The position numbers and the translations under genes were made by a program. The notes under the pieces were generated by a model. That model made no database searches. It was not told where the DNA came from and worked only from the letters and a program-made list of their open reading frames with translations. 27,228 nucleotides of DNA, taken from IMG/VR virus record IMGVR_UViG_3300042392_001262, positions 1 through 27,228 of that record. One strand, given 5' to 3'. This document shows positions 14,192-24,923 of the stretch, piece by piece. The DNA comes from a virus. How positions within the stretch are numbered: position 1 is the stretch's first letter; every line of letters begins with the position of its first letter.

Positions 14192-14442
<251 letters not shown>

Positions 14443-14953: not shown

Positions 14954-15418
14954 ATGAGTAAATTTCAATCAACAAAATTATTTGACGGATTTAGTTGTGT
15001 GTTTCGTCAATGGAAAGCAGAAGGTACACACTGTCGTTTTCTCCACGGTTATGGAGTATCATTTAGAGTATGGTTTGAAGGTGAATTAGATGAAAAAAAT
15101 TGGGTTTGGGACTTTGGAGGTATGAAACGTGCTAAAGGTACTATTGATAATATGAATCCTAAAGAATGGATGGACTACATGTTTGATCATACTACAATTA
15201 TTGCAGAGGATGATCCTGGAATAGGTGGATTTAAAACAATGGATCAACTAGGTATAATTCAGCTTAGAGTCATTCCAGCTGTTGGAGCAGAACAATTTGC
15301 TAAATTTATATTTGAGAAATTAAATACATTTGTTCAAGAGGAAACAAGCGGTAGAGTTAAAATAGCGAGAGTAGAATTCATGGAACACGCTAAAAATACT
15401 GCTATATATGAAGGCTAA
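14954..15418 (+). CDS. queD: QueD-like 6-carboxytetrahydropterin synthase
   Basis: 154 residues of the T-fold PTPS/QueD family, which converts dihydroneopterin triphosphate to 6-carboxytetrahydropterin in 7-deazaguanine synthesis. Seen: THCRFLHGYG (catalytic-type Cys27, then His31), WDFGGMK (52-58, the 'DF..LK' element), FDHT (Asp78-His79, the catalytic pair) and a C-terminal Glu (RVEFMEH). The classic zinc ligands are HGH plus an upstream 'FSAAH' His. Here the motif is HGY (Tyr33) and the upstream position reads FSCVF, so two of three ligands are replaced. I believe similar forms exist in other phages, so this may be a family variant rather than decay. It overlaps the next gene by 11 nt. Confidence 0.8.
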   Translation: MSKFQSTKLFDGFSCVFRQWKAEGTHCRFLHGYGVSFRVWFEGELDEKNWVWDFGGMKRAKGTIDNMNPKEWMDYMFDHTTIIAEDDPGIGGFKTMDQLGIIQLRVIPAVGAEQFAKFIFEKLNTFVQEETSGRVKIARVEFMEHAKNTAIYEG

Positions 15419-15680
15419 ATTAAGTAAACAACTCCAAAAAGAATTAATCAATAAATATGAATTAGAAAATCCACCTCCATATACTGAAGGACATTGGGAT
15501 GATGCTATGTTGGAGAATGATAGTTTTTATGATATAGATATACTTCATAAACATAATAAACCAATTTTAGAAAAAATTAAATATTGGCAAGATGAATTTA
15601 AACCATCAGGCAACATGGGAAAATGGTGGGCATCAGTTCAAATAGAAAAATTAAGGAAACAACTAAAACATTATAAATGA
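15408..15680 (+). CDS. Small unknown protein between queD and dpdA
   Basis: 90 residues, overlapping queD by 11 nt and dpdA by an ATGA, so it is tightly coupled to both. The sequence is polar and rich in Lys/Trp/His (NPPPYTEGHWDD, GKWWASVQIEKLRKQLKHYK) with a probable C-terminal helix. No known motif. Its place inside the pathway operon makes an accessory role in base modification possible but unproven. Confidence 0.6.
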   Translation: MKAKLSKQLQKELINKYELENPPPYTEGHWDDAMLENDSFYDIDILHKHNKPILEKIKYWQDEFKPSGNMGKWWASVQIEKLRKQLKHYK

Positions 15681-16462
15681 AAATATCACACGAACTACCT
15701 CTTAGTTTAATGGATTATGCTTACAAATGGAATGATTATGATTATTGTCTTCCTCACTTAATAGATGAATCAATGCAGTATAGATTATTCTTTCAAAAAT
15801 CAAGAATAGATAAAAGATTCATTATAATGGATAATGGATTATTTGAAGGAGTAGATCATACAATAGAAGATTTACTTGAAAAAATTAGTCTTATTCATCC
15901 TAATGTATTCATTATTCCTGACGCTTGGAATGATTCAACCTCAACTATTAGAAGTGCAAAACATTGGATGATAAATTATGGTGATAAACTAAAGGAAATT
16001 GATGTTAATTTAATGGCTGTATGTCAAGGCAAAACAATAGGTGAATTAATAACTACATATCAAACATTAGTTGATTTAGGCTACAAACATATAGCATTCA
16101 ATCATTCTAGCATTGCCTATCAAGAACTAGGATATGATAATTCTTTAAAGAATCAAATGTATGGCAGAATGGAATTTATTAGAAAATTAGTTGAAAATAA
16201 AACTATTAGAGAAACATTCTACCATCATTTACTTGGTTGTTCTTTACCTCAAGAATTTATGGCTTATAAAGATTGGAAATTTATCAAATCAGTAGATACA
16301 TCTAATCCTATCCTAGTAGGAGCAGAAGGTAAACATTACACAGATAGTGGTATAAATTGGAAACCAAAAGAAAAATTAGCTTATTATTTTGAAAAAGATT
16401 TATCTGACCGAATTGATGATATTAGCTTTAATGTAAATAAATTTAAAGAATATGTTAAATAA
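15677..16462 (+). CDS. dpdA: DpdA-like DNA 7-deazaguanine transglycosylase
   Basis: 261 residues with the sequence landmarks of a TGT-type TIM barrel in their usual order. They are FIIMDNGLFEG (Asp52, first catalytic Asp), VFIIPDAW (Asp82), AVCQGKT (115-120, the base-recognition Gln-Gly), HHLLGCSLP (183-191, the 'GVG.P' strand) and SVDTSNPILVG (Asp207, candidate nucleophile, with the D-T/S-S-N-P form I associate with phage DpdA). The Cys3-His zinc site of tRNA-guanine transglycosylases is absent: only three Cys occur, far apart. The expected reaction is exchange of G in DNA for preQ0 or a derivative, protecting phage DNA from host nucleases. Close linkage to folE, queD, queE and queC strongly supports this over a tRNA enzyme. 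The subfamily cannot be fixed by eye. Confidence 0.85.
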   Translation: MKISHELPLSLMDYAYKWNDYDYCLPHLIDESMQYRLFFQKSRIDKRFIIMDNGLFEGVDHTIEDLLEKISLIHPNVFIIPDAWNDSTSTIRSAKHWMINYGDKLKEIDVNLMAVCQGKTIGELITTYQTLVDLGYKHIAFNHSSIAYQELGYDNSLKNQMYGRMEFIRKLVENKTIRETFYHHLLGCSLPQEFMAYKDWKFIKSVDTSNPILVGAEGKHYTDSGINWKPKEKLAYYFEKDLSDRIDDISFNVNKFKEYVK

Positions 16463-16751
16463 TACACAATCACTTTATGATTATTTAGGTAGAGCAGCTG
16501 GTCCAACATTAGGTTTAGAAGTAGCTAAATATGCTAGACAACAAAATTCACCAGTACAAACTAGAGAAATATCAAATCCTAAATATTCAGGTCTTGTAAA
16601 TTTATATACTGAAAATTTATTAATGGCTTTTTTTAATAATCCAAATTATAGAGATATTATCAACACTGATAAAATCCAATACGAATTAAAATCAAAAAAA
16701 TCGCTTGAACGGAAGATAAGCGAATCACAAGATAATACTCTTCCATTTTAA
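16452..16751 (+). CDS. Small unknown protein downstream of dpdA
   Basis: 99 residues, start overlapping dpdA by 11 nt. The N-terminal 'SLYDYLGRAAGPTLGLEVAKYARQ' and 'REISNPKYSGLVNLYTENLL' stretches are well ordered and look conserved; I have an impression of similar small phage proteins but no name or function. The C-terminus is Lys/Ser-rich (KSKKSLERKISESQ). It is followed 12 nt later by queC. A dpdA partner role is a guess from coupling. Confidence 0.6.
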   Translation: MLNNTQSLYDYLGRAAGPTLGLEVAKYARQQNSPVQTREISNPKYSGLVNLYTENLLMAFFNNPNYRDIINTDKIQYELKSKKSLERKISESQDNTLPF

Positions 16752-16763
16752 TTTAAAATAAAA

Positions 16764-17567
16764 ATGAAAAAATCAGTTTTAAGTCTTTCAGGTGGAATGG
16801 ATTCTAGTTCATTATTACTTCATCTATTAGCTAAAGGTTATCAAGTAACAGCTTTAGGTTTTGATTATGGTCAAAAACATAAAGTAGAATTAGACCGTGC
16901 TAAATCATTAGTAGAATATTTAAAATCTAAAGGACAAAAAGTAACACATCAGATTATTAAGTTGGATGGTTTATCTCAATTACTTAATTCAGCTTTAGTC
17001 ACAGGTGGTAAAGATGTACCTGAAGGACACTACGAACAAGACAATATGAAAGATACTGTTGTTCCTAATCGTAATAAGATATTTGCTTCACTTATTCAAG
17101 CGGTAGCATTATCAGAAGCGACTAAAGATAAAAAACAAGAATGTATTATAGCAATGGGTATTCACGCTGGTGATCACGCTATTTATCCTGATTGTAGACA
17201 AGAGTTTAGAGATGCTGATTTTGAAGCATTTAAAGTTGGTAATTGGGATTCAGAATTAGTATCACATTATACTCCATATTTGAATACTGATAAATTTGGT
17301 ATTTTAGAAGATGGTTTAAAATGTTGTGAAATACTAGATTTAGAATTTGATAAAGTTTATAGGCGTACAAATACTTCTTATAAACCAATATGGTTTGAAG
17401 GAGAATGGTATTCAGATTATAAATCAGCAGCATCTGTAGAGCGTATTGAAGCATTTATTAAACTAGGTCGTCCTGATCCTGTAGCTTATGCTGATGAAAC
17501 AGGACCTGTACGTTGGGAAGTAGCTAAAACAGCAGTAGAAAAAGTATTAAACGAATATAATAAATAA
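16764..17567 (+). CDS. queC: QueC-like 7-cyano-7-deazaguanine (preQ0) synthase
   Basis: 267 residues of the PP-loop ATP pyrophosphatase family. Seen: SGGMDSSS P-loop (9-16), GFDYGQKHK (32-40), VVPNRN (99-104), GIHAGDHAIYPDCRQEF (132-148) and the C-terminal VERIEAF (225-231). QueC converts carboxydeazaguanine, via the amide, to preQ0 with two ATP. The usual C-terminal zinc site (C...CxxCxxC before V/R-x-R-x-E-x-F) is gone. The aligned positions are Ser205, Asp218, Ser221 and Ser224. The rest of the enzyme is intact, so it is probably active without zinc, or stops at the amide. A rho-independent terminator follows. Confidence 0.85.
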   Translation: MKKSVLSLSGGMDSSSLLLHLLAKGYQVTALGFDYGQKHKVELDRAKSLVEYLKSKGQKVTHQIIKLDGLSQLLNSALVTGGKDVPEGHYEQDNMKDTVVPNRNKIFASLIQAVALSEATKDKKQECIIAMGIHAGDHAIYPDCRQEFRDADFEAFKVGNWDSELVSHYTPYLNTDKFGILEDGLKCCEILDLEFDKVYRRTNTSYKPIWFEGEWYSDYKSAASVERIEAFIKLGRPDPVAYADETGPVRWEVAKTAVEKVLNEYNK

Positions 17568-17695
17568 TGCATGAATTTCAACATATATTAGGATTATGTG
17601 CTGACTCAAAAACACATTTAAACATATTGGGGTTTCTTTTGGAACCCCAACTTTTACAACATATATTTAATTATCTAAAAACATGGAGGATTTAA
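17567..17695 (+). CDS. Possible 42-aa ORF spanning the queC terminator
   Basis: ATG 17567 overlaps the queC stop (TAATG) and runs 42 codons (MHEFQHILGLCADSKTHLNI...) to TAA 17693-17695. The TAATG overlap is typical of coupled genes here. However, the frame reads through the strong hairpin at 17627-17650, which encodes LGFLLEPQ, and ends 3 nt before the next gene. It may be a real small gene or an accidental frame. Confidence 0.3.
   Translation: MHEFQHILGLCADSKTHLNILGFLLEPQLLQHIFNYLKTWRI
17627..17655 (+). terminator. Rho-independent terminator after queC
   Basis: TTGGGGTTTC (17627-17636) pairs with GGAACCCCAA (17641-17650) over 10 bp with one G-U pair and a TTTT loop, followed by CTTTT. It is the strongest hairpin seen in the window and lies 60 nt after the queC stop, closing the queD-dpdA-queC group. 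Confidence 0.75.
17638..17669 (+). promoter_or_regulatory. Bacteroidetes-type promoter overlapping the terminator loop
   Basis: TTTG (17638-17641) is formed by the terminator's loop and the first base of its right arm. A 20-nt spacer and TATATTTA (17662-17669) follow, the same boxes and spacing as at 5357 and 7142. It would drive the 76-aa gene, queE and the genes after it. Confidence 0.6.
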
Positions 17696-17698
17696 CCA

Positions 17699-17929
17699 AT
17701 GAAGTGTCTTAAAAATGTCAAAACAGGAACAATTATTCGCTTAGATGACTTTAAAGCGGACAACATGGTAGGAAGGGAGTGGATTTTTGTTTCCAAAACA
17801 GAATGGAAATCATTAACTCGTAAACCAGAACCAGTAGTTGAATCTACAAAAACTATCTCAGACAGTATTATTAGAGGTCTTGAAGGAGAAACAATTTCAG
17901 AAAAACAATTAAAACGTAAGAAAAAATGA
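17699..17929 (+). CDS. Small unknown basic protein upstream of queE
   Basis: 76 residues. The first half 'MKCLKNVKTGTIIRLDDFKADNMVGREWIFVSKTEWKSL' looks like a small SH3-like beta fold of a kind I have seen in phage proteins beginning 'KxVKTG'. The second half is a charged linker ending KQLKRKKK. A GGAGG lies 9 nt before the ATG (17685-17689), a good Shine-Dalgarno, unlike other starts here. That GGAGG is itself within a nine-codon frame from ATG 17683. It overlaps queE by ATGA, so the two are translated together. No function can be assigned. Confidence 0.65.
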   Translation: MKCLKNVKTGTIIRLDDFKADNMVGREWIFVSKTEWKSLTRKPEPVVESTKTISDSIIRGLEGETISEKQLKRKKK

Positions 17930-18816
17930 GTAAAATAGATCCTAAAAAACTATTAATAAGCTCTGATTTCTACTCTGTCCAAGGTGAGGGTATTTCATCA
18001 GGAGTACCTTCATACTTTGTTCGTTTAGGTATTTGTAATCTGACTTGTGGTATGAGTAGAGCATTTACAAATAATCTTTTAAAAGAAGCATCATTAGAAG
18101 ATGGTGAAATTTTTAAAGGTGATTTAGAGTTAGAAGGTAAAGCGTCTTGGACTTGTGATTCAACAAGTCAATGGTTATGGAGAGGCGAAGATAAAGAATT
18201 TGATTATTTAATTAAACGTTGGAAAGATGAAGGTGTTTATGATGATATATTAAATGGTATTATTCATATCATTTGGACAGGTGGAGAACCTACAATTAAA
18301 GGACATCAAGAAGCTATTGTTAATTTTCATAAGTATTGGCTATTACAAGTAGATCCATCAACAACACTTCCTGGTAAAGAATATGCTTGGAGATTACCGG
18401 AGAATGATTTAATTGTAAGGCATAACTATAATGAAATAGAAACAAACGGTACAATAGTAATTGAAGATGATTTATTTAAAATTATAGATCAAATCAACTG
18501 TTCACCTAAGTTATCTAATTCAGGTATGGATGTTAAACAGCGTATTAATGAAGCTGCTATTAAACGTGTAATGGAACATAAAAATTATCAATTTAAATTT
18601 GTTATATCTAATGAAGAAGATGTTCAAGAATTATTTCGTGACTTTGTCATACCATTTAGCATACCTCTTACCAACTTGGTTTGTATGCCAGGATTAGATG
18701 ATGTATCTAATTTTGAAGAACGTACTCAATTTTGTTTAGAAATGGCTAAAAAATATAGATTTAGAGGTTTGACTCGTCTTCATATTGCAGCCTGGAATAA
18801 AACACTTAATGTATAA
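17926..18816 (+). CDS. queE: QueE-like 7-carboxy-7-deazaguanine synthase (radical SAM)
   Basis: 296 residues. 'FYSVQGEGISSGVPSYFVRLGICNLTC' is the QueE signature with cluster cysteines Cys37 and Cys41. The third, usually two residues later (CxxxCxxC followed by D-T/S), is instead at Cys77 in SWTCDST, so the cluster motif is CxxxC-x35-C with an inserted segment (42-76). 'HIIWTGGEPTIKGHQ' (about 113-127) is the SAM-binding GGEP motif. The enzyme makes CDG from carboxytetrahydropterin using a 4Fe-4S cluster, SAM and Mg. I recall similar inserted forms in marine phage QueE proteins. It is translationally coupled to the preceding small gene. Confidence 0.85.
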   Translation: MSKIDPKKLLISSDFYSVQGEGISSGVPSYFVRLGICNLTCGMSRAFTNNLLKEASLEDGEIFKGDLELEGKASWTCDSTSQWLWRGEDKEFDYLIKRWKDEGVYDDILNGIIHIIWTGGEPTIKGHQEAIVNFHKYWLLQVDPSTTLPGKEYAWRLPENDLIVRHNYNEIETNGTIVIEDDLFKIIDQINCSPKLSNSGMDVKQRINEAAIKRVMEHKNYQFKFVISNEEDVQELFRDFVIPFSIPLTNLVCMPGLDDVSNFEERTQFCLEMAKKYRFRGLTRLHIAAWNKTLNV

Positions 18817-18934
18817 AATAATTAATTTAATATTAGGTTTAGTAGCTACATTTAGTATTCCTTTAGGTTTACTATGGTTAGCTACTACCTATTCAAACAA
18901 AAAAGATAAAAATGAATATAACAATAACTCCTGA
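18809..18934 (+). CDS. Small single-TM protein
   Basis: A 41-residue frame (ATG 18809, TGA 18932-18934) overlapping the queE end by 8 nt and the next gene by 23 nt. It encodes a hydrophobic segment at about residues 4-27 (IINLILGLVATFSIPLGLLW), then a polar tail (NKKDKNEYNNNS). The overlap pattern and the clean TM-plus-tail shape argue for a real gene. Function unknown. Confidence 0.5.
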   Translation: MYKIINLILGLVATFSIPLGLLWLATTYSNKKDKNEYNNNS

Positions 18935-19130
18935 TAATGTCTATACAGGTATAGCTTTATTACTTATGAGTTTACAGATTTACCAATATAGACAATTAGA
19001 AAAATCTAGAAAAGAAATACAACGACTGTGGGATCAAATAGCTACATTTAACACTATGGTCGCTTTAAAACTTTTGGAAACTCAACAAGATATTAATAAA
19101 TTAAATGAAAATAAGAATGATGGAAAATAA
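18912..19130 (+). CDS. Small membrane-anchored coiled-coil protein
   Basis: 72 residues: short N-terminus, a hydrophobic segment (about 11-26, VYTGIALLLMSLQIYQY), then a charged helix likely to form a coiled coil (QLEKSRKEIQRLWDQI ... LLETQQDINKLNE). Together with the preceding 41-aa frame it makes a pair of tiny membrane proteins between queE and folE. Spanin/holin-like shapes are similar, but nothing here proves lysis function. Confidence 0.6.
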   Translation: MNITITPDNVYTGIALLLMSLQIYQYRQLEKSRKEIQRLWDQIATFNTMVALKLLETQQDINKLNENKNDGK

Positions 19131-19848
19131 AAGAAGAACAGTAGCAGATATTGAAGCTCTAGAAACTGCTAAACCTGGTTTTGCAAATGGTATTTCATTA
19201 CAATTAAAATCACGTATTGAAGATGGTTTCCATCGTTCACTTACAGATAATGAAAAATGGCTTATTGTAGGTGAAGCTGAAACAGCATATGGTAAATTTT
19301 TAGATGCGTTAGGTGTTGATTGGAGAAATGATCCAAATAGTATGGAAACACCTCGTCGTGTAGCTAAAGCATATGTATTTGATTTATGGAAAGGTAGATA
19401 TGAATTACCAACTGACATTACATCATTTCCATCTGATGGATATGAAGGTATTGTATTAGAAAGAGATATTCCAATTGTTAGTATGTGTTCTCATCACCAC
19501 CAAGCAATTTTAGGTAAAGCACACGTAGCTTATATACCAGGTAAAGAAGGTAAAGTAGTTGGTTTAAGTAAATTAAATCGTATTGTAGAACATTTTGCTC
19601 GTAGAGGTGCTATCCAAGAACAACTTACAGTTGCTATTCATAACGCTGTAAATACTGTTTGTGAAGATAACGCAGGTGTGATGGTAATAGTACATGCTGG
19701 ACACCAATGTGTTAGTTGTAGAGGGGTTAAACATCAAGGAGCATCAATGGTTACAAGTGAAGTAAGTGGAGTATTTGCTGATCATAGTCGTACTGCTAAA
19801 GCTGAAGTATTAGAAATGATTAAATTAAATCTTCAATCTTATTGTTGA
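19105..19848 (+). CDS. folE: GTP cyclohydrolase I
   Basis: 247 residues (243 if translation starts at ATG 19117, which I find as likely because 19105 lies 26 nt inside the upstream gene). FolE type I landmarks: ETPRRVAKAY (81-90), zinc ligands Cys128 and His131 in MCSHHHQAI, GLSKLNRIVEHFARR (153-167), and GHQCVSCRGV with Cys202 as third zinc ligand and the catalytic-type His200. The product is dihydroneopterin triphosphate from GTP, the first step of the preQ0 pathway whose other enzymes are QueD, QueE and QueC here. The zinc site is fully conserved, in contrast to this phage's QueD and QueC. The N-terminal ~40 residues extend beyond the core. Confidence 0.92.
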   Translation: MKIRMMENKRRTVADIEALETAKPGFANGISLQLKSRIEDGFHRSLTDNEKWLIVGEAETAYGKFLDALGVDWRNDPNSMETPRRVAKAYVFDLWKGRYELPTDITSFPSDGYEGIVLERDIPIVSMCSHHHQAILGKAHVAYIPGKEGKVVGLSKLNRIVEHFARRGAIQEQLTVAIHNAVNTVCEDNAGVMVIVHAGHQCVSCRGVKHQGASMVTSEVSGVFADHSRTAKAEVLEMIKLNLQSYC

Positions 19849-19868
19849 AATTTAAAATAAAATAGATA

Positions 19869-20279
19869 ATGAATAAAATATACTTAACCTGGAATAATAT
19901 TGAAGACGCTGTTGTAAGTTTAGCTCACCAAATTAAAACTAGTGGCAAATCTATAGAAGCAATAGCTGGATTACCTAGAGGAGGACTTATTCCAGCTGTA
20001 TTGCTTTCTCATAAACTTAATTTACCATATGTTGATATAATGGGAGACTGTGAAGAATATGAACATATTCTAATAGTAGATGATATATGTGACTCAGGAG
20101 TAACTCTTAAACAATATCATCAATTATTTTCTACAGCTACTATTCATTATAAACAAACAGCTATAGTTGAACCTAATTTTTACTATAGTTTAGTCTCTGA
20201 AAGTATATGGATAGTATACCCATGGGAACGTGAAGATTCAGAAGCGGTACCTGATTATTTAAAAAGATCAATAATGTAA
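19869..20279 (+). CDS. Type I phosphoribosyltransferase
   Basis: 136 residues. ILIVDDICDSGVTL (67-80) is the PRPP-binding loop of type I PRTases, and AGLPRGGLIPAVLLSHKL (33-50) is the usual pyrophosphate-loop strand. The C-terminal 'WIVYPWERED' recalls xanthine/guanine-type PRTases. It likely salvages a purine base using PRPP. The length is short compared with Gpt/Hpt (about 150-180). A role with 7-deazaguanine bases cannot be excluded, since it stands next to folE and in the same strand group. Confidence 0.75.
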   Translation: MNKIYLTWNNIEDAVVSLAHQIKTSGKSIEAIAGLPRGGLIPAVLLSHKLNLPYVDIMGDCEEYEHILIVDDICDSGVTLKQYHQLFSTATIHYKQTAIVEPNFYYSLVSESIWIVYPWEREDSEAVPDYLKRSIM

Positions 20280-20283
20280 TAAT

Positions 20284-20445
20284 ATGCAACAAAAAGAAAG
20301 TAAAACAAATTGGCATTTCAGACTCAGTATGATTAAATCAGTTTTTAGAATATTCGCAGGTGTAGCTATTATGTTCCAAGATTTTGAAATTGGAGGTTTT
20401 TTACTTATATTAGCTGAAGCAGTTGGAATAGCAGAAGAATTTTAA
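20284..20445 (+). CDS. Small hydrophobic protein
   Basis: A 53-residue frame filling the gap between the PRTase and the DCD/DUT gene. It has a basic N-terminus (MQQKESKTNWHFRLSMIKS), a hydrophobic stretch broken by polar residues (VFRIFAGVAIMFQDFEIGGFLLILAEAVGIAEEF), and two possible short membrane helices. It starts 4 nt after the PRTase stop and ends 12 nt before the next gene. Function unknown. Confidence 0.55.
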   Translation: MQQKESKTNWHFRLSMIKSVFRIFAGVAIMFQDFEIGGFLLILAEAVGIAEEF

Positions 20446-20457
20446 TAAATTTATAAT

Positions 20458-20991
20458 ATGTTAAACGCAAAACAAATAGTAGATGAAGGATTACTCCTTC
20501 TAGAAAACACAAAAGGTAAACCAGCACAAGTAGGTTATGACCTTAGTTTAAAAGCAGTAAATAAAGTAGGTTCTAGTAGAGTCGTAGGAGGAACTTTTAA
20601 TAAAGATGCTAAAATAGGTAAAATATTAAAAGATAAGACTGAATTAACTACTTACATTCCAATTGACCCAATCAAATTAGATGGAGATGAAGGATGGTTA
20701 TTATATGAAGGTGTATATGATATTACATTTAATGAAGGATGTAATATACCTGATAATAGAGTAGCATTCATTAAACAACGATCATCTCTCTACCGCAACG
20801 GTGCTATAATTAATAGTCCTGTATTTGATCCTGGCTTTAAAACCGAATTTATGGGTACATTATTGTATGTACATGAAACAATATTCATTGAACAAGATGC
20901 TAGAGTAGCACAAATATATTTTCATGAGTGTATGTCCGCTGAAATGTATGATGGTCAATGGCAAGGTGATAAACAACGTAATTCTCTTTAA
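20458..20991 (+). CDS. dCTP deaminase / dUTPase superfamily protein
   Basis: 177 residues. 'AQVGYDLSL' (23-31), 'FIKQRSSLYRNGAIINSPVFDPGF' and 'RVAQIYFHE', then a C-terminal 'YDGQWQGDKQ', follow the DCD-DUT trimer fold in order: RSSL substrate Arg/Ser, the D-P-G-F turn and the closing tail. The family makes dUMP/dUTP precursors for dTTP synthesis or removes dUTP. I cannot place the catalytic Glu that separates deaminases from dUTPases with confidence, so substrate specificity is left open. It fits with the RNR and PRTase as pool-adjusting genes. Confidence 0.75.
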   Translation: MLNAKQIVDEGLLLLENTKGKPAQVGYDLSLKAVNKVGSSRVVGGTFNKDAKIGKILKDKTELTTYIPIDPIKLDGDEGWLLYEGVYDITFNEGCNIPDNRVAFIKQRSSLYRNGAIINSPVFDPGFKTEFMGTLLYVHETIFIEQDARVAQIYFHECMSAEMYDGQWQGDKQRNSL

Positions 20992-22414: not shown

Positions 22415-23674
22415 ATGGAAACAATTTTTATATCAATCGCGAGTTATCGCGACCCGGAGTTATTACCAACATTAAGAGATTGTATAGCAAATGCTAAACA
22501 ATCAGATAGACTAGTATTTGGAATCTGTAGACAATTTCACCCAGATGATAAATTCGATGTTTTAGATGAATTTAAAAATGATCAAAGATTTAAAGTTGTT
22601 AATGTACCTTATGAACATTCTAAAGGTACATGTTGGGCTAGAAATATGATCCAAGATTTATATGATGGGGAAACTTATTATATGCAATTAGATTCACACC
22701 ATCGTTTTACTAAGAACTGGGATTTGACTTTAATTAAAATGTTAAAGCAACTTAAAAAATTAGGACACAAGAAACCATTATTAACAGCTTATTTACCTGG
22801 ATTTTTTCCAGATAATGATCCAGTAGGTCGAGTCCAAGATTGTTGGAATTTAGAATTTGATAGATATATGCCTGAGGGTCCTATTTTTATTAAGCCTCAT
22901 TCTATTGATGGGTGGCAAAATTTAGAATCACCTTATCCAGCTAGATTTTTATCAGCACATTTTATCTTTACTTTAGGCAAATGGGCTAAAGAAGTAAGAT
23001 ATGATCCTAATTTTTATTTTCACGGTGAAGAACCATCATTAGCTGCTAGATCATATACTCATGGATATGATTTATTTCAACCACATATACCTGTTATATG
23101 GCATGAGTATACTAGAAATGGTAAAACTAAACAATGGGATGATGATAAAGAATGGGCTGAGAAAAATAAAGTATCATATTCTAGATATAGAGCATTACAT
23201 GGAATGGGTAGTGTAATTGAAGGTACAACTAAAGATTTATTTGAAAAATACGGATGGGGTAAAGAACGCTCATTACATGAATATGAAAGATATATTGGTG
23301 TAAGATTTTCCACAAGACAAGTACATAAACATACATCTGAATATCTTCCACTTCCAGTTCCACAAGAAGATTTTGAAGAAAATTTAGTTAACAGAATTAA
23401 AGTTTGTATTGATTATTGGAAGGGAGCTTTAGTTGAACCAGATTATGATCTATTAGTTGTTGCTATATTAGATAAAAATGGAGAAGATATCTTTAGACAA
23501 GATGTAGATAAAAATGAATTAAATTCCTTAATAAACTCTGATCCACAAGATCAATTTATCCATATTTGGAGAGAATATGATGATAATAAACAACCATCTA
23601 AATGGAGAGTTTGGCCACATAGTGAATCAAAAGGTTACTTAGAAAGAACAGATCAAGACATACCATATGAATAA
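22415..23674 (+). CDS. GT60-like GlcNAc-transferase family glycosyltransferase (copy 1)
   Basis: 419 residues. 'IFISIASYRDPELLPTLRDCI' (4-24) opens a GT-A fold of the Skp1/GlcNAc-transferase family (Pfam Glycosyltransferase-GlcNAc; CAZy GT60-like). 'VFGICRQFHP' (34-43) and QLDSHHRF (91-98, the D-S-H metal/nucleotide motif) follow. 'FLSAHFIFTLGKW' and 'FHGEEPSLAARSYTHGYDLF', then 'HIPVIWHEY', complete the signature. Characterised relatives attach GlcNAc to protein hydroxyproline or threonine. The last ~90 residues (after 'HKHTSEYLPLP') look like a separate small domain. It is paralogous to the next gene, which it overlaps by 8 nt. Confidence 0.8.
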   Translation: METIFISIASYRDPELLPTLRDCIANAKQSDRLVFGICRQFHPDDKFDVLDEFKNDQRFKVVNVPYEHSKGTCWARNMIQDLYDGETYYMQLDSHHRFTKNWDLTLIKMLKQLKKLGHKKPLLTAYLPGFFPDNDPVGRVQDCWNLEFDRYMPEGPIFIKPHSIDGWQNLESPYPARFLSAHFIFTLGKWAKEVRYDPNFYFHGEEPSLAARSYTHGYDLFQPHIPVIWHEYTRNGKTKQWDDDKEWAEKNKVSYSRYRALHGMGSVIEGTTKDLFEKYGWGKERSLHEYERYIGVRFSTRQVHKHTSEYLPLPVPQEDFEENLVNRIKVCIDYWKGALVEPDYDLLVVAILDKNGEDIFRQDVDKNELNSLINSDPQDQFIHIWREYDDNKQPSKWRVWPHSESKGYLERTDQDIPYE

Positions 23675-24923
23675 AAAAGAAACAATACTGGTACATCTAC
23701 CAGCGTATCGCGACCCAGAGTTAGTTCCTACTATTAAAGATGCTTTGGATAAAGCTAAATATCCTAAACGTATTCATTTTGGAATATGTAGACAATATCA
23801 TCCTGAAGATAGTTTTGACAATCTAGACGAGTTTAGAAAAGATAAACGTTTTCATATCATGGATGTGTTATATACTGAATCACAAGGTTTACCTTGGGCT
23901 AGAGCACAGATAAATGAGAAATTACTAACTAATCAAGATTATATCTGCCAGTTAGATTCACATCATCGTTTTGCTCAAGATTGGGATGTAACATTAATTG
24001 AAATGCATAACAATCTAGAAAAGAAAGGTCACAAACCAATTTTAGCGGCTTATCTACCATTATACGATCCATTTAATGACCCAGCAGGTAGAGCTGATGT
24101 ACCATGGCAACAACAGTTTGTCTGTTTTTATCCACATGGAACAATATTTATTAGACCAGCTTTATTAACAGGATGGGAAAATATGACTGAACCTCCATTT
24201 AGTAGATTTTTATCAGGACATTTTTGTTTTGCTAGAAACGAATGGGCTAAAGAAATAAGACATGATCCAGATATTTACTTTAGTGGTGAAGAAATTAATT
24301 TAACAGTTAGATCTTATACTCATGGATATGATTTATTCCATCCTCATAAAATGGTAATATGGCATTCAACAATGAGAGAAGAACGAGCGGGTAAATTAAA
24401 GTGGGATGATGATGCTAAACTAGGAGTTGATTGGTGGACTAAACAAGAATATGCTCGTAAAAAAATAAGAACATTATTTAGAGTAGAAGACAATCCAGAA
24501 ATTAATTTAACAGGATATGATTTAGGAACTGCTAGAACAATAGCTGATTATGAGGCATATGCTGGAGTTAATTTTAAAACAAGATCAGTACAAAAATATA
24601 CTGTAGAAAATGGATATCCACCAACACCAATTAATAGTCCATGGTCTAAATCATTCTATCATTTAGTTACAATTTATAGACAATCACTTCCTGAAAATGA
24701 TTATTCATCTATATTAATAGCATTTGATGATAAAGATGGTATAGGTATTTATTCTAAAACTATAGAAGGATATGAATTACAAAATTTCTTAAATAATAAT
24801 GGACCTATTCATTATGAAGAATATTTTGAATACTTTGATAAAGAACCATCTAGGATGGTGGCATGGGCATATAGTAAAGAAAGAGGTTGGGCTGAACGTT
24901 TTGAAACTAGTTTAAATGATTAA
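23667..24923 (+). CDS. GT60-like GlcNAc-transferase family glycosyltransferase (copy 2)
   Basis: 418 residues with the same plan as copy 1: LPAYRDPELVPTIKDAL (11-27), HFGICRQYHPEDSFDNLDEF, QLDSHHRF (95-102), FLSGHFCFARNEW, FSGEEINLTVRSYTHGYDLFHPH and a 'MVIWHSTMREERAGKLKWDD' segment longer than in copy 1. Both end in a similar ~90-residue domain with 'D-K-D/N-G' and 'RV/MVAWxxSxxxG' motifs. The copies have clearly diverged, so they may add different sugars or use different acceptors. The start is inside copy 1 (8-nt overlap), implying coupled expression. Confidence 0.8.
   Translation: MNKKETILVHLPAYRDPELVPTIKDALDKAKYPKRIHFGICRQYHPEDSFDNLDEFRKDKRFHIMDVLYTESQGLPWARAQINEKLLTNQDYICQLDSHHRFAQDWDVTLIEMHNNLEKKGHKPILAAYLPLYDPFNDPAGRADVPWQQQFVCFYPHGTIFIRPALLTGWENMTEPPFSRFLSGHFCFARNEWAKEIRHDPDIYFSGEEINLTVRSYTHGYDLFHPHKMVIWHSTMREERAGKLKWDDDAKLGVDWWTKQEYARKKIRTLFRVEDNPEINLTGYDLGTARTIADYEAYAGVNFKTRSVQKYTVENGYPPTPINSPWSKSFYHLVTIYRQSLPENDYSSILIAFDDKDGIGIYSKTIEGYELQNFLNNNGPIHYEEYFEYFDKEPSRMVAWAYSKERGWAERFETSLND

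What the first reader, a model, noticed from the sequence alone, without database searches (positions are those of the whole stretch)
14954..19848. Near-complete 7-deazaguanine DNA modification pathway with a DpdA transglycosylase
FolE, QueD, QueE and QueC give GTP to preQ0, and the DpdA-like protein supplies insertion into DNA. The order is queD - orf90 - dpdA - orf99 - queC - terminator/promoter - orf76 - queE - two tiny membrane genes - folE. No QueF, amidotransferase, DpdL-, DpdM- or DpdN-like gene is recognised here, so dPreQ0 (or the amide form) is the expected base. Known: such modifications protect phage DNA from restriction.
Basis: partly seen in the sequence, partly recalled or inferred. 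Interest (0 to 1): 0.7.

Follow-up and report, generated by a model that had tools for sequence, protein, structure and literature searches.

The report
Phage guanine-replacing pathway, zinc motifs missing
A virus of aquatic bacteria carries a full gene set predicted to swap guanine in its DNA for a protective look-alike base, and two of its enzymes lack the metal-binding motifs that normally define them.

Summary
Confirmed. Window 14954-19848 encodes QueD, a DpdA-type transglycosylase, QueC, QueE and FolE: a complete GTP-to-preQ0 route plus an inserting enzyme, all five present in 32 of 35 viral loci that span the site. The DpdA call, invisible to the TGT Pfam model (0 of 32 records), is upheld by a confident model with the TGT/DpdA fold, invariant D52, D82, D207, and a homologue in Campylobacter phage CP220, whose dG is reported as 100% dADG (PMC8306585, passage). 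No QueF, formyltransferase or GATase_6 gene was found in 29 IMG/VR records of this clade, so dPreQ0 (or dADG) is predicted, perhaps at high occupancy. Such zinc-less QueC is the only full-length QueC in 12 of 12 TGT-bearing genomes checked. A guanine-type phosphoribosyltransferase beside folE may recycle released guanine (inference). Known kind of system, new enzyme variants; no activity is measured.

The parts
14954..15418 (+). queD-type 6-carboxytetrahydropterin synthase, 154 aa, with CxxxHGY (C27..Y33) in place of CxxxHGH and F17 in place of the first His
   Evidence: Pfam PTPS 1.7e-15, PHROG QueD 1e-39; motif in 63 of 63 viral rows
15408..15680 (+). orf90, unknown, conserved with the cluster
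   Evidence: homologues in 49 of 66 loci; no family hit of note
15677..16462 (+). dpdA-type guanine transglycosylase, 261 aa; D52, D82, Q117, D207 conserved
   Evidence: phrog_19058; homologues in immuto, CP220, phi13:1, BSTP12, CC_R7; AlphaFold2 pLDDT 94.9; TGT/DpdA fold; invariant residues
16452..16751 (+). orf99, unknown
   Evidence: homologues in 42 of 66 loci
16764..17567 (+). queC-type preQ0 synthase, 267 aa, zinc Cys4 replaced by S205/D218/S221/S224
   Evidence: Pfam QueC 2.1e-36; invariant in 44 of 44; fold of QueC 3bl5 Z 18.2, rmsd 3.0, 196 aligned
17567..17695 (+). orf42, tiny conserved protein; holds a hairpin about 17627-17650
   Evidence: homologues in 37 of 66 loci; hairpin
17699..17929 (+). 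orf76, unknown
   Evidence: homologues in 22 of 66 loci
17926..18816 (+). queE-type radical SAM CDG synthase, 296 aa, split cluster motif C37-x3-C41-x35-C77
   Evidence: PHROG QueE 2.5e-36; motif seen in all 44 full-length rows; nearest phage relative HVTV-1
18912..19130 (+). orf72, small, probable membrane segment (by eye)
   Evidence: homologues in 12 of 66 loci
19105..19848 (+). folE GTP cyclohydrolase I, 247 aa, canonical-looking C/H/C metal residues kept
   Evidence: Pfam 7.5e-46; motif rows
19869..20279 (+). 6-oxopurine (Gpt/Xpt-like) phosphoribosyltransferase, proposed guanine salvage
   Evidence: Pfam 2.6e-11; best solved relative 1vdm purine PRTase 1.5e-12, E. coli XGPRT 1a98 2.3e-6; in 22 of 40 loci where both neighbours are seen
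20458..20991 (+). dCTP-deaminase/dUTPase-like gene, conserved flank of the cluster
   Evidence: Pfam DCD 1.9e-12; 41 of 66 loci

Best explanation
A tailed phage makes 7-deazaguanine itself and puts it into its own DNA. FolE turns GTP into dihydroneopterin triphosphate, QueD makes 6-carboxytetrahydropterin, QueE makes CDG, QueC makes preQ0 (via ADG), and the DpdA-type transglycosylase cuts the glycosidic bond of guanine in finished DNA with D207 as nucleophile and joins the modified base there, releasing guanine. The result, most likely dPreQ0 (dADG as second choice), would shield the DNA from restriction enzymes. The neighbouring phosphoribosyltransferase plausibly turns the released guanine back into GMP. 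QueD and QueC of this lineage do their steps without the canonical zinc sites. Shown here: genes, order, conservation, fold, catalytic pattern, missing motifs. Inferred: every catalytic activity, DNA as the substrate, the identity and occupancy of the base, protection, the salvage role.
For: Homology of all five genes; all five in 32 of 35 spanning loci; the transglycosylase family is found beside 7-deazaguanine genes also in immuto, phi13:1, CC_R7 and BSTP12; TGT/DpdA fold (DpdA 7ui4 Z 17.3, rmsd 3.3, 230 aligned); a family-wide profile finds DpdA 7ui4 as best natural protein in the PDB (E 5e-4, behind one designed TIM barrel) and aligns D52 and D207 with the DSG and VDSS motifs of CAjan-type DpdA (E 8e-5; unrelated control E 0.13); CAjan needs dpdA for modification and gains restriction resistance from it (PMC6884629, Results parts 2 and 3 read); CP220 dG is 100% dADG (PMC8306585, passage). 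No QueF over cut-off, Formyl_trans_N or GATase_6 in 29 IMG/VR records up to 183 kb, while immuto rings for the first two. Zinc-less QueC is the sole full-length QueC in 12 of 12 genomes, all with a TGT; in 6 of these the HGY-type QueD is the sole PTPS.
Against: No experiment. The narrow profile of the window's own DpdA clade does not beat chance against phage DpdA (E 0.12), and the broad one is nearer tRNA TGTs (E 1.3e-6), so DNA specificity rests on context. QueC and QueD fail their published signatures, so either might have shifted function. CC_R7 and CPt10 QueC keep the four cysteines, so the dADG precedent does not transfer directly. PRT is missing in 18 of 40 loci where it could be seen. 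All IMG/VR records may be fragments.
Confidence: 0.85

Rival explanations
1. The route stops at ADG: the zinc-less QueC carries out only the first ATP-dependent step and DpdA inserts ADG, giving dADG as in CP220.
For: CP220, whose transglycosylase is 34% identical, has 100% dADG (PMC8306585, passage); the metal site of QueC is gone.
Against: CPt10 (dADG by the same passage) keeps all four cysteines, so cysteine loss is not the cause of dADG there; immuto with the same zinc-less QueC also has QueF, which acts on preQ0; zinc-less QueC is the sole full-length QueC in 12 of 12 TGT-bearing genomes.
Confidence: 0.25
2. The genes boost queuosine in host tRNA rather than modify DNA.
For: The broad profile aligns somewhat better to tRNA TGTs than to phage DpdA; the Cysteiniphilum-type bacteria use the same QueC with an ordinary TGT.
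Against: The family lacks a PF01702 match altogether and is about 100 residues shorter than TGTs; relatives sit in phages with modified DNA; PMC6884629 reports that no phage encodes QueA, QueG or QueH.
Confidence: 0.07
3. The phosphoribosyltransferase makes a 7-deazaguanine nucleotide, so that the base enters DNA as a triphosphate during replication instead of by base exchange.
For: PRT sits beside folE here and between queE and folE in immuto; complete replacement is reported for a relative.
Against: PRT is absent in CP220 and in 18 of 40 visible sites, whereas the transglycosylase is always there (partly by construction, as loci were found with it).
Confidence: 0.04

Closest known systems
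Flavobacterium phage vB_FspM_immuto (Immutovirus)
   Same: QueD 71%, FolE 61%, QueC 61%, PRT 55%, DpdA 33% identical; same S/D/S/S QueC and F/Y QueD
   Different: has QueF and a formyltransferase; a QueE of another branch; queC lies apart
Campylobacter phages CP220/CPt10 (Firehammervirus)
   Same: homologous transglycosylase, 34%; reported 100% dG to dADG (PMC8306585, passage)
   Different: QueC of CPt10 keeps Cys4; no PRT found in CP220
[quoted passage not shown]
   Same: FolE-QueD-QueE-QueC plus DpdA, no amidotransferase; PMC6884629 group 2
   Different: other DpdA subfamily; canonical QueC (CAjan and the Rosebush-type phage Boyle) and HGH QueD; about 30% of G modified (PMC6884629)
Halovirus HVTV-1
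   Same: nearest phage QueE, 33%, with a split CX3CX22C motif
   Different: makes mainly dPreQ1 (PMC6884629, Table 2)
DpdA3 subfamily (Cui et al. 2023, recalled; paper not held)
   Same: recalled as the subfamily for complete guanine replacement
   Different: not tested against the published set
QueC of Cysteiniphilum, Poseidoniales and Pirellulaceae
   Same: no Cys4; 47-63% identical; Cysteiniphilum type has the very same S/D/S/S
   Different: chromosomal, in genomes with an ordinary TGT

Membership tests
Phage preQ0 DNA-modification group (PMC6884629 group 2) | FolE, QueD, QueE, QueC homologues | tested here: met
Phage preQ0 DNA-modification group (PMC6884629 group 2) | a DpdA homologue | tested here: met
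   fold and catalytic pattern; PF01702 itself gives nothing
Phage preQ0 DNA-modification group (PMC6884629 group 2) | no QueF / amidotransferase | tested here: met
   PF14489 over cut-off 1 of 32 (immuto only), PF13522 0 of 32; ArcS not searched; records may be fragments
Phage preQ0 DNA-modification group (PMC6884629 group 2) | 7-deazaguanine in virion DNA | not testable with these tools
   needs LC-MS
DpdA / TGT superfamily | TIM-barrel fold of TGT | tested here: met
DpdA / TGT superfamily | two catalytic aspartates (roles recalled) | tested here: met
   D52 and D207 invariant in 52 of 52 and 15 of 15 rows, aligned with D of DSG and VDSS
DpdA / TGT superfamily | DNA rather than tRNA as substrate | not testable with these tools
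   profiles do not separate the two
DpdA3 subfamily (recalled) | clusters with published DpdA3 sequences | not tested
   paper not held; only homology to CP220 seen
Canonical QueC (PMC13329287) | SGGxDS, YxQxHxxE, VPxRN, YPDC, essential Tyr after the first Cys | tested here: met
   S9-S14, Y35-E42, V100-N104, Y141-C144, Y206 in the window row
Canonical QueC (PMC13329287) | C(x)8CxxCxxC zinc motif | tested here: not met
   S205/D218/S221/S224 invariant in 44 of 44
QueD / PTPS-I (PMC5041015) | CxxxHGH | tested here: not met
   CxxxHGY in 63 of 63 viral rows
QueE | CxxxCxxC radical SAM cluster motif (recalled) | tested here: inconclusive
   three Cys present but as CX3CX35C

The most novel reading that the evidence does not exclude
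There is a second, unrecognised version of the preQ0 pathway in which QueC works without its zinc site and QueD with a rebuilt one (CxxxHGY plus an invariant His before the Cys). It is shared by these phages and by whole cellular lineages (Thiotrichales such as Cysteiniphilum, Poseidoniales and group III archaea, and, for QueC, Pirellulaceae), so the QueC zinc is not needed for the chemistry as now stated; in the phage it feeds near-complete replacement of guanine, with the freed guanine recycled by the phosphoribosyltransferase.
Probability: 0.4. Interest if true: 0.65.

Novelty: new variant of a known kind. Interest (0 to 1): 0.5.

Why it matters
Phages with fully replaced guanine are candidates for broad escape from restriction. 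The DpdA branch here has no TGT Pfam match, so scans with that model alone will miss such phages. The QueC and QueD variants contradict the published family signatures and the statement that zinc is required for QueC (PMC13329287), and offer natural enzymes to test what the metal does. The PRT link proposes an answer to where the released guanine goes.

Tried and rejected
Megablast of window 5000-27228 against phages found nothing. Sequence search of the PDB with the window DpdA alone gave only chance-like hits, and with its narrow clade profile too; the narrow profile against phage DpdA was at chance level, which is why a broader alignment of 15 was made and checked with an unrelated control. 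I first thought cysteine loss in QueC might explain dADG; CPt10, with Cys4, speaks against it. PRT as a universal partner was rejected: 22 of 40 sites, 20 of 32 records. Promoter hits are not above chance. Sub-cut-off QueF hits in 20 IMG/VR records are read as FolE: one (G018/L042) was placed by coordinates on the folE gene, the others were not checked one by one.

Limits of the counts. The tree is a quick one with long branches among the reference phages; it was built without the motif columns and from 97 rows, six cellular rows having been left out beforehand (L092, L142, L149, L150, L152, L155: truncated or with unknown residues); only 11 of the phage-contig QueCs were put in it. The cellular set is the best 80 of 267 relatives found with two patterns from the query, so it favours the query's type. 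The genome checks used 12 zinc-less and 2 Cys-type genomes for QueC and TGT and 11 of the 12 for PTPS. For the QueC alignment 44 rows were given of the 47 distinct long ones, the window standing for L005 (L026, L032, L052 left out: cut or extended ends). An earlier count gave wrong spacings for the QueE motif; the report has the recounted ones.

Literature: the paper that defines DpdA3 is not held and the word DpdA3 finds only yeast papers. Zinc-less QueC or HGY QueD was not found described and in a find within PMC13329287, which cover only open-licence PMC papers; only PMC5041015 was looked into.
Full report
Observation. The four named enzymes score below NCBIfam's equivalog cut-offs, i.e. 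they are diverged. The window is a 27-kb virus record; two longer IMG/VR contigs of 60,504 and 72,313 bases match it at 16,783 of 16,783 compared bases each.

Conservation. A scan of IMG/VR with the transglycosylase gave 66 loci. QueD is found in 62 of 66, QueC 60, QueE 52, FolE 44; many loci are cut by contig ends. Of 35 that span nrdJ to the dCTP-deaminase gene, 32 hold all five genes, and 30 keep the window's order. This is an operon-like, conserved unit in a family of aquatic phages, some contigs of which reach 183 kb.

The transglycosylase. Pfam finds nothing, and TGT PF01702 rings in 0 of 32 phage records, among them the immuto phage where the gene is annotated as DpdA. Relatives lie in immuto (33%), Campylobacter phages such as CP220 (34%) and CC_R7 (27%), Cellulophaga phiST/phi13:1 (22%) and Bacillus BSTP phages (24%). 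I opened five such neighbourhoods; four have 7-deazaguanine genes beside it, and in CP220 none was annotated in the stretch shown. An AlphaFold2 model from 52 sequences (pLDDT 94.9, pTM 0.91) matches TGTs and DpdA 7ui4 (Foldseek E 1.8e-8 and 1.5e-7; Z 17.3 for 7ui4, rmsd 3.3, 230 aligned), and the phiST protein among viral models (TM 0.89). D52, D82 and D207 are invariant in 52 of 52 near and 15 of 15 mixed near and distant members. A profile of the 15 aligns with four phage DpdA at E 8e-5 and pairs D52 and D207 with their DSG and VDSS aspartates, with five cellular TGTs at E 1.3e-6, and with an unrelated family at 0.13; the narrow profile of 52 does not pass (E 0.12). So superfamily membership is well supported; DNA as the substrate is inferred from context. 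PMC6884629 (Results, parts 2 and 3 read) had put the Campylobacter phages in the group without DpdA; from memory, a later paper (Cui et al. 2023, not held) named the missing enzyme DpdA3 and tied it to complete replacement of guanine. PMC8306585 (passages) gives 100% dADG for CP220 and CPt10. The window protein being a CP220 relative, high occupancy is a reasonable but unproven prediction.

Which base. QueF is over its cut-off only in immuto (1 of 32), likewise Formyl_trans_N; GATase_6 in none. ArcS, DpdL and DpdM were not searched. dPreQ0 is expected, dADG second.

QueC. The canonical motifs of PMC13329287 (parts 1 and 2 and passages read) are kept (SGGxDS, YxQxHxxE, VPxRN, YPDC, the essential Tyr), but the C(x)8CxxCxxC zinc motif is replaced by S205, D218, S221, S224, invariant in 44 of 44 aligned phage QueCs. 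Immuto has the same; of ten other reference phages nine have Cys4 and one, R26L, has SLDT. A scan of GTDB genomes found relatives (38-70% identical) on chromosomes and on contigs that look viral (they carry the same transglycosylase): 70 of 74 in the tree lack Cys4 (S/D/S/S in the Thiotrichales such as Cysteiniphilum; mostly S/x/[ST]/D in Poseidoniales, marine group III and Pirellulaceae); four have CCCC. On a quick tree made without the motif columns three changes suffice. In 12 of 12 such genomes this is the only full-length QueC, and each has one TGT. The model superposes on B. subtilis QueC (Z 18.2, rmsd 3.0, 196 aligned). So the variant very probably makes preQ0, and the zinc site is not universal; this is inference from genomes, not an assay.

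QueD. PMC5041015 (passages) defines PTPS-I/QueD by CxxxHGH. Here it is CxxxHGY, with Phe where E. coli has the His of AAH (alignment; that these are zinc ligands is recalled). All 63 viral rows have F/Y; in all 80 F/Y rows a His before the catalytic Cys is invariant. phi47:1 has this QueD with a Cys4 QueC, so the two traits are not strictly tied. In six genomes (five Thiotrichales, one euryarchaeote) the HGY form is the sole PTPS. FolE keeps its C/H/C residues. QueE has a split motif CX3CX35C (counted by eye); HVTV-1, which makes dPreQ1 at about 30% of G (PMC6884629, Table 2), has CX3CX22C in its related QueE, so the split form can work.

Guanine salvage. The gene after folE is a Gpt/Xpt-type phosphoribosyltransferase, present in 22 of 40 loci that show the site, directly in the FolE-PRT-DCD order in 17 of 17 spanning loci that have it, and in immuto between queE and folE. 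Each base exchange frees a guanine; recycling it to GMP would refill the GTP that FolE uses. This is inference, and the gene is not universal.

Mosaic. Against its near twin L006 the window is 96-100% identical in most of the rest, but the modification segment is an island: DpdA 91%, QueE 89%, PRT 63%, orf53 74%, dCTP-deaminase 84%. Exchange of alleles in just these genes fits pressure from host defences, as inference.

Verdict. The finding is right; the system is of a known kind, with enzyme variants that I did not find described in the searches I could make. No activity was measured.

Noticed in passing
window 15677-20991 against L006: Island of divergence over the modification genes between two phages otherwise mostly 96-100% identical; PRT, orf53 and dCTP-deaminase most.
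   Followed up: partly
window 22415-24923: Two paralogous GlcNAc-type glycosyltransferases (PF11397) in tandem, followed by two unknown genes and a cut carbamoyltransferase-like gene from 26711; surface glycan or DNA glycosylation both open.
   Followed up: no
L166:417-1253: Dinoroseobacter phage R26L QueC has lost the zinc cysteines apparently independently (SLDT).
   Followed up: no
folE in L005-L070: Two folE alleles at the same site in syntenic loci: 75-100% identical to the window, or 43-50% with a different motif.
   Followed up: no
L154: Contig binned as Spirochaetia with a transglycosylase relative (36%) and a Cys4 QueC.
   Followed up: no
window 17627-17650: Hairpin GGGGTTTC-TTTT-GGAACCCC inside the conserved tiny frame orf42; same or similar in L005, L006, L007, L017, L018 of ten loci checked.
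   Followed up: partly
window 14257-14442: DUF5522 gene with homologues in 62 of 66 loci just upstream of the cluster; function unknown.
   Followed up: no
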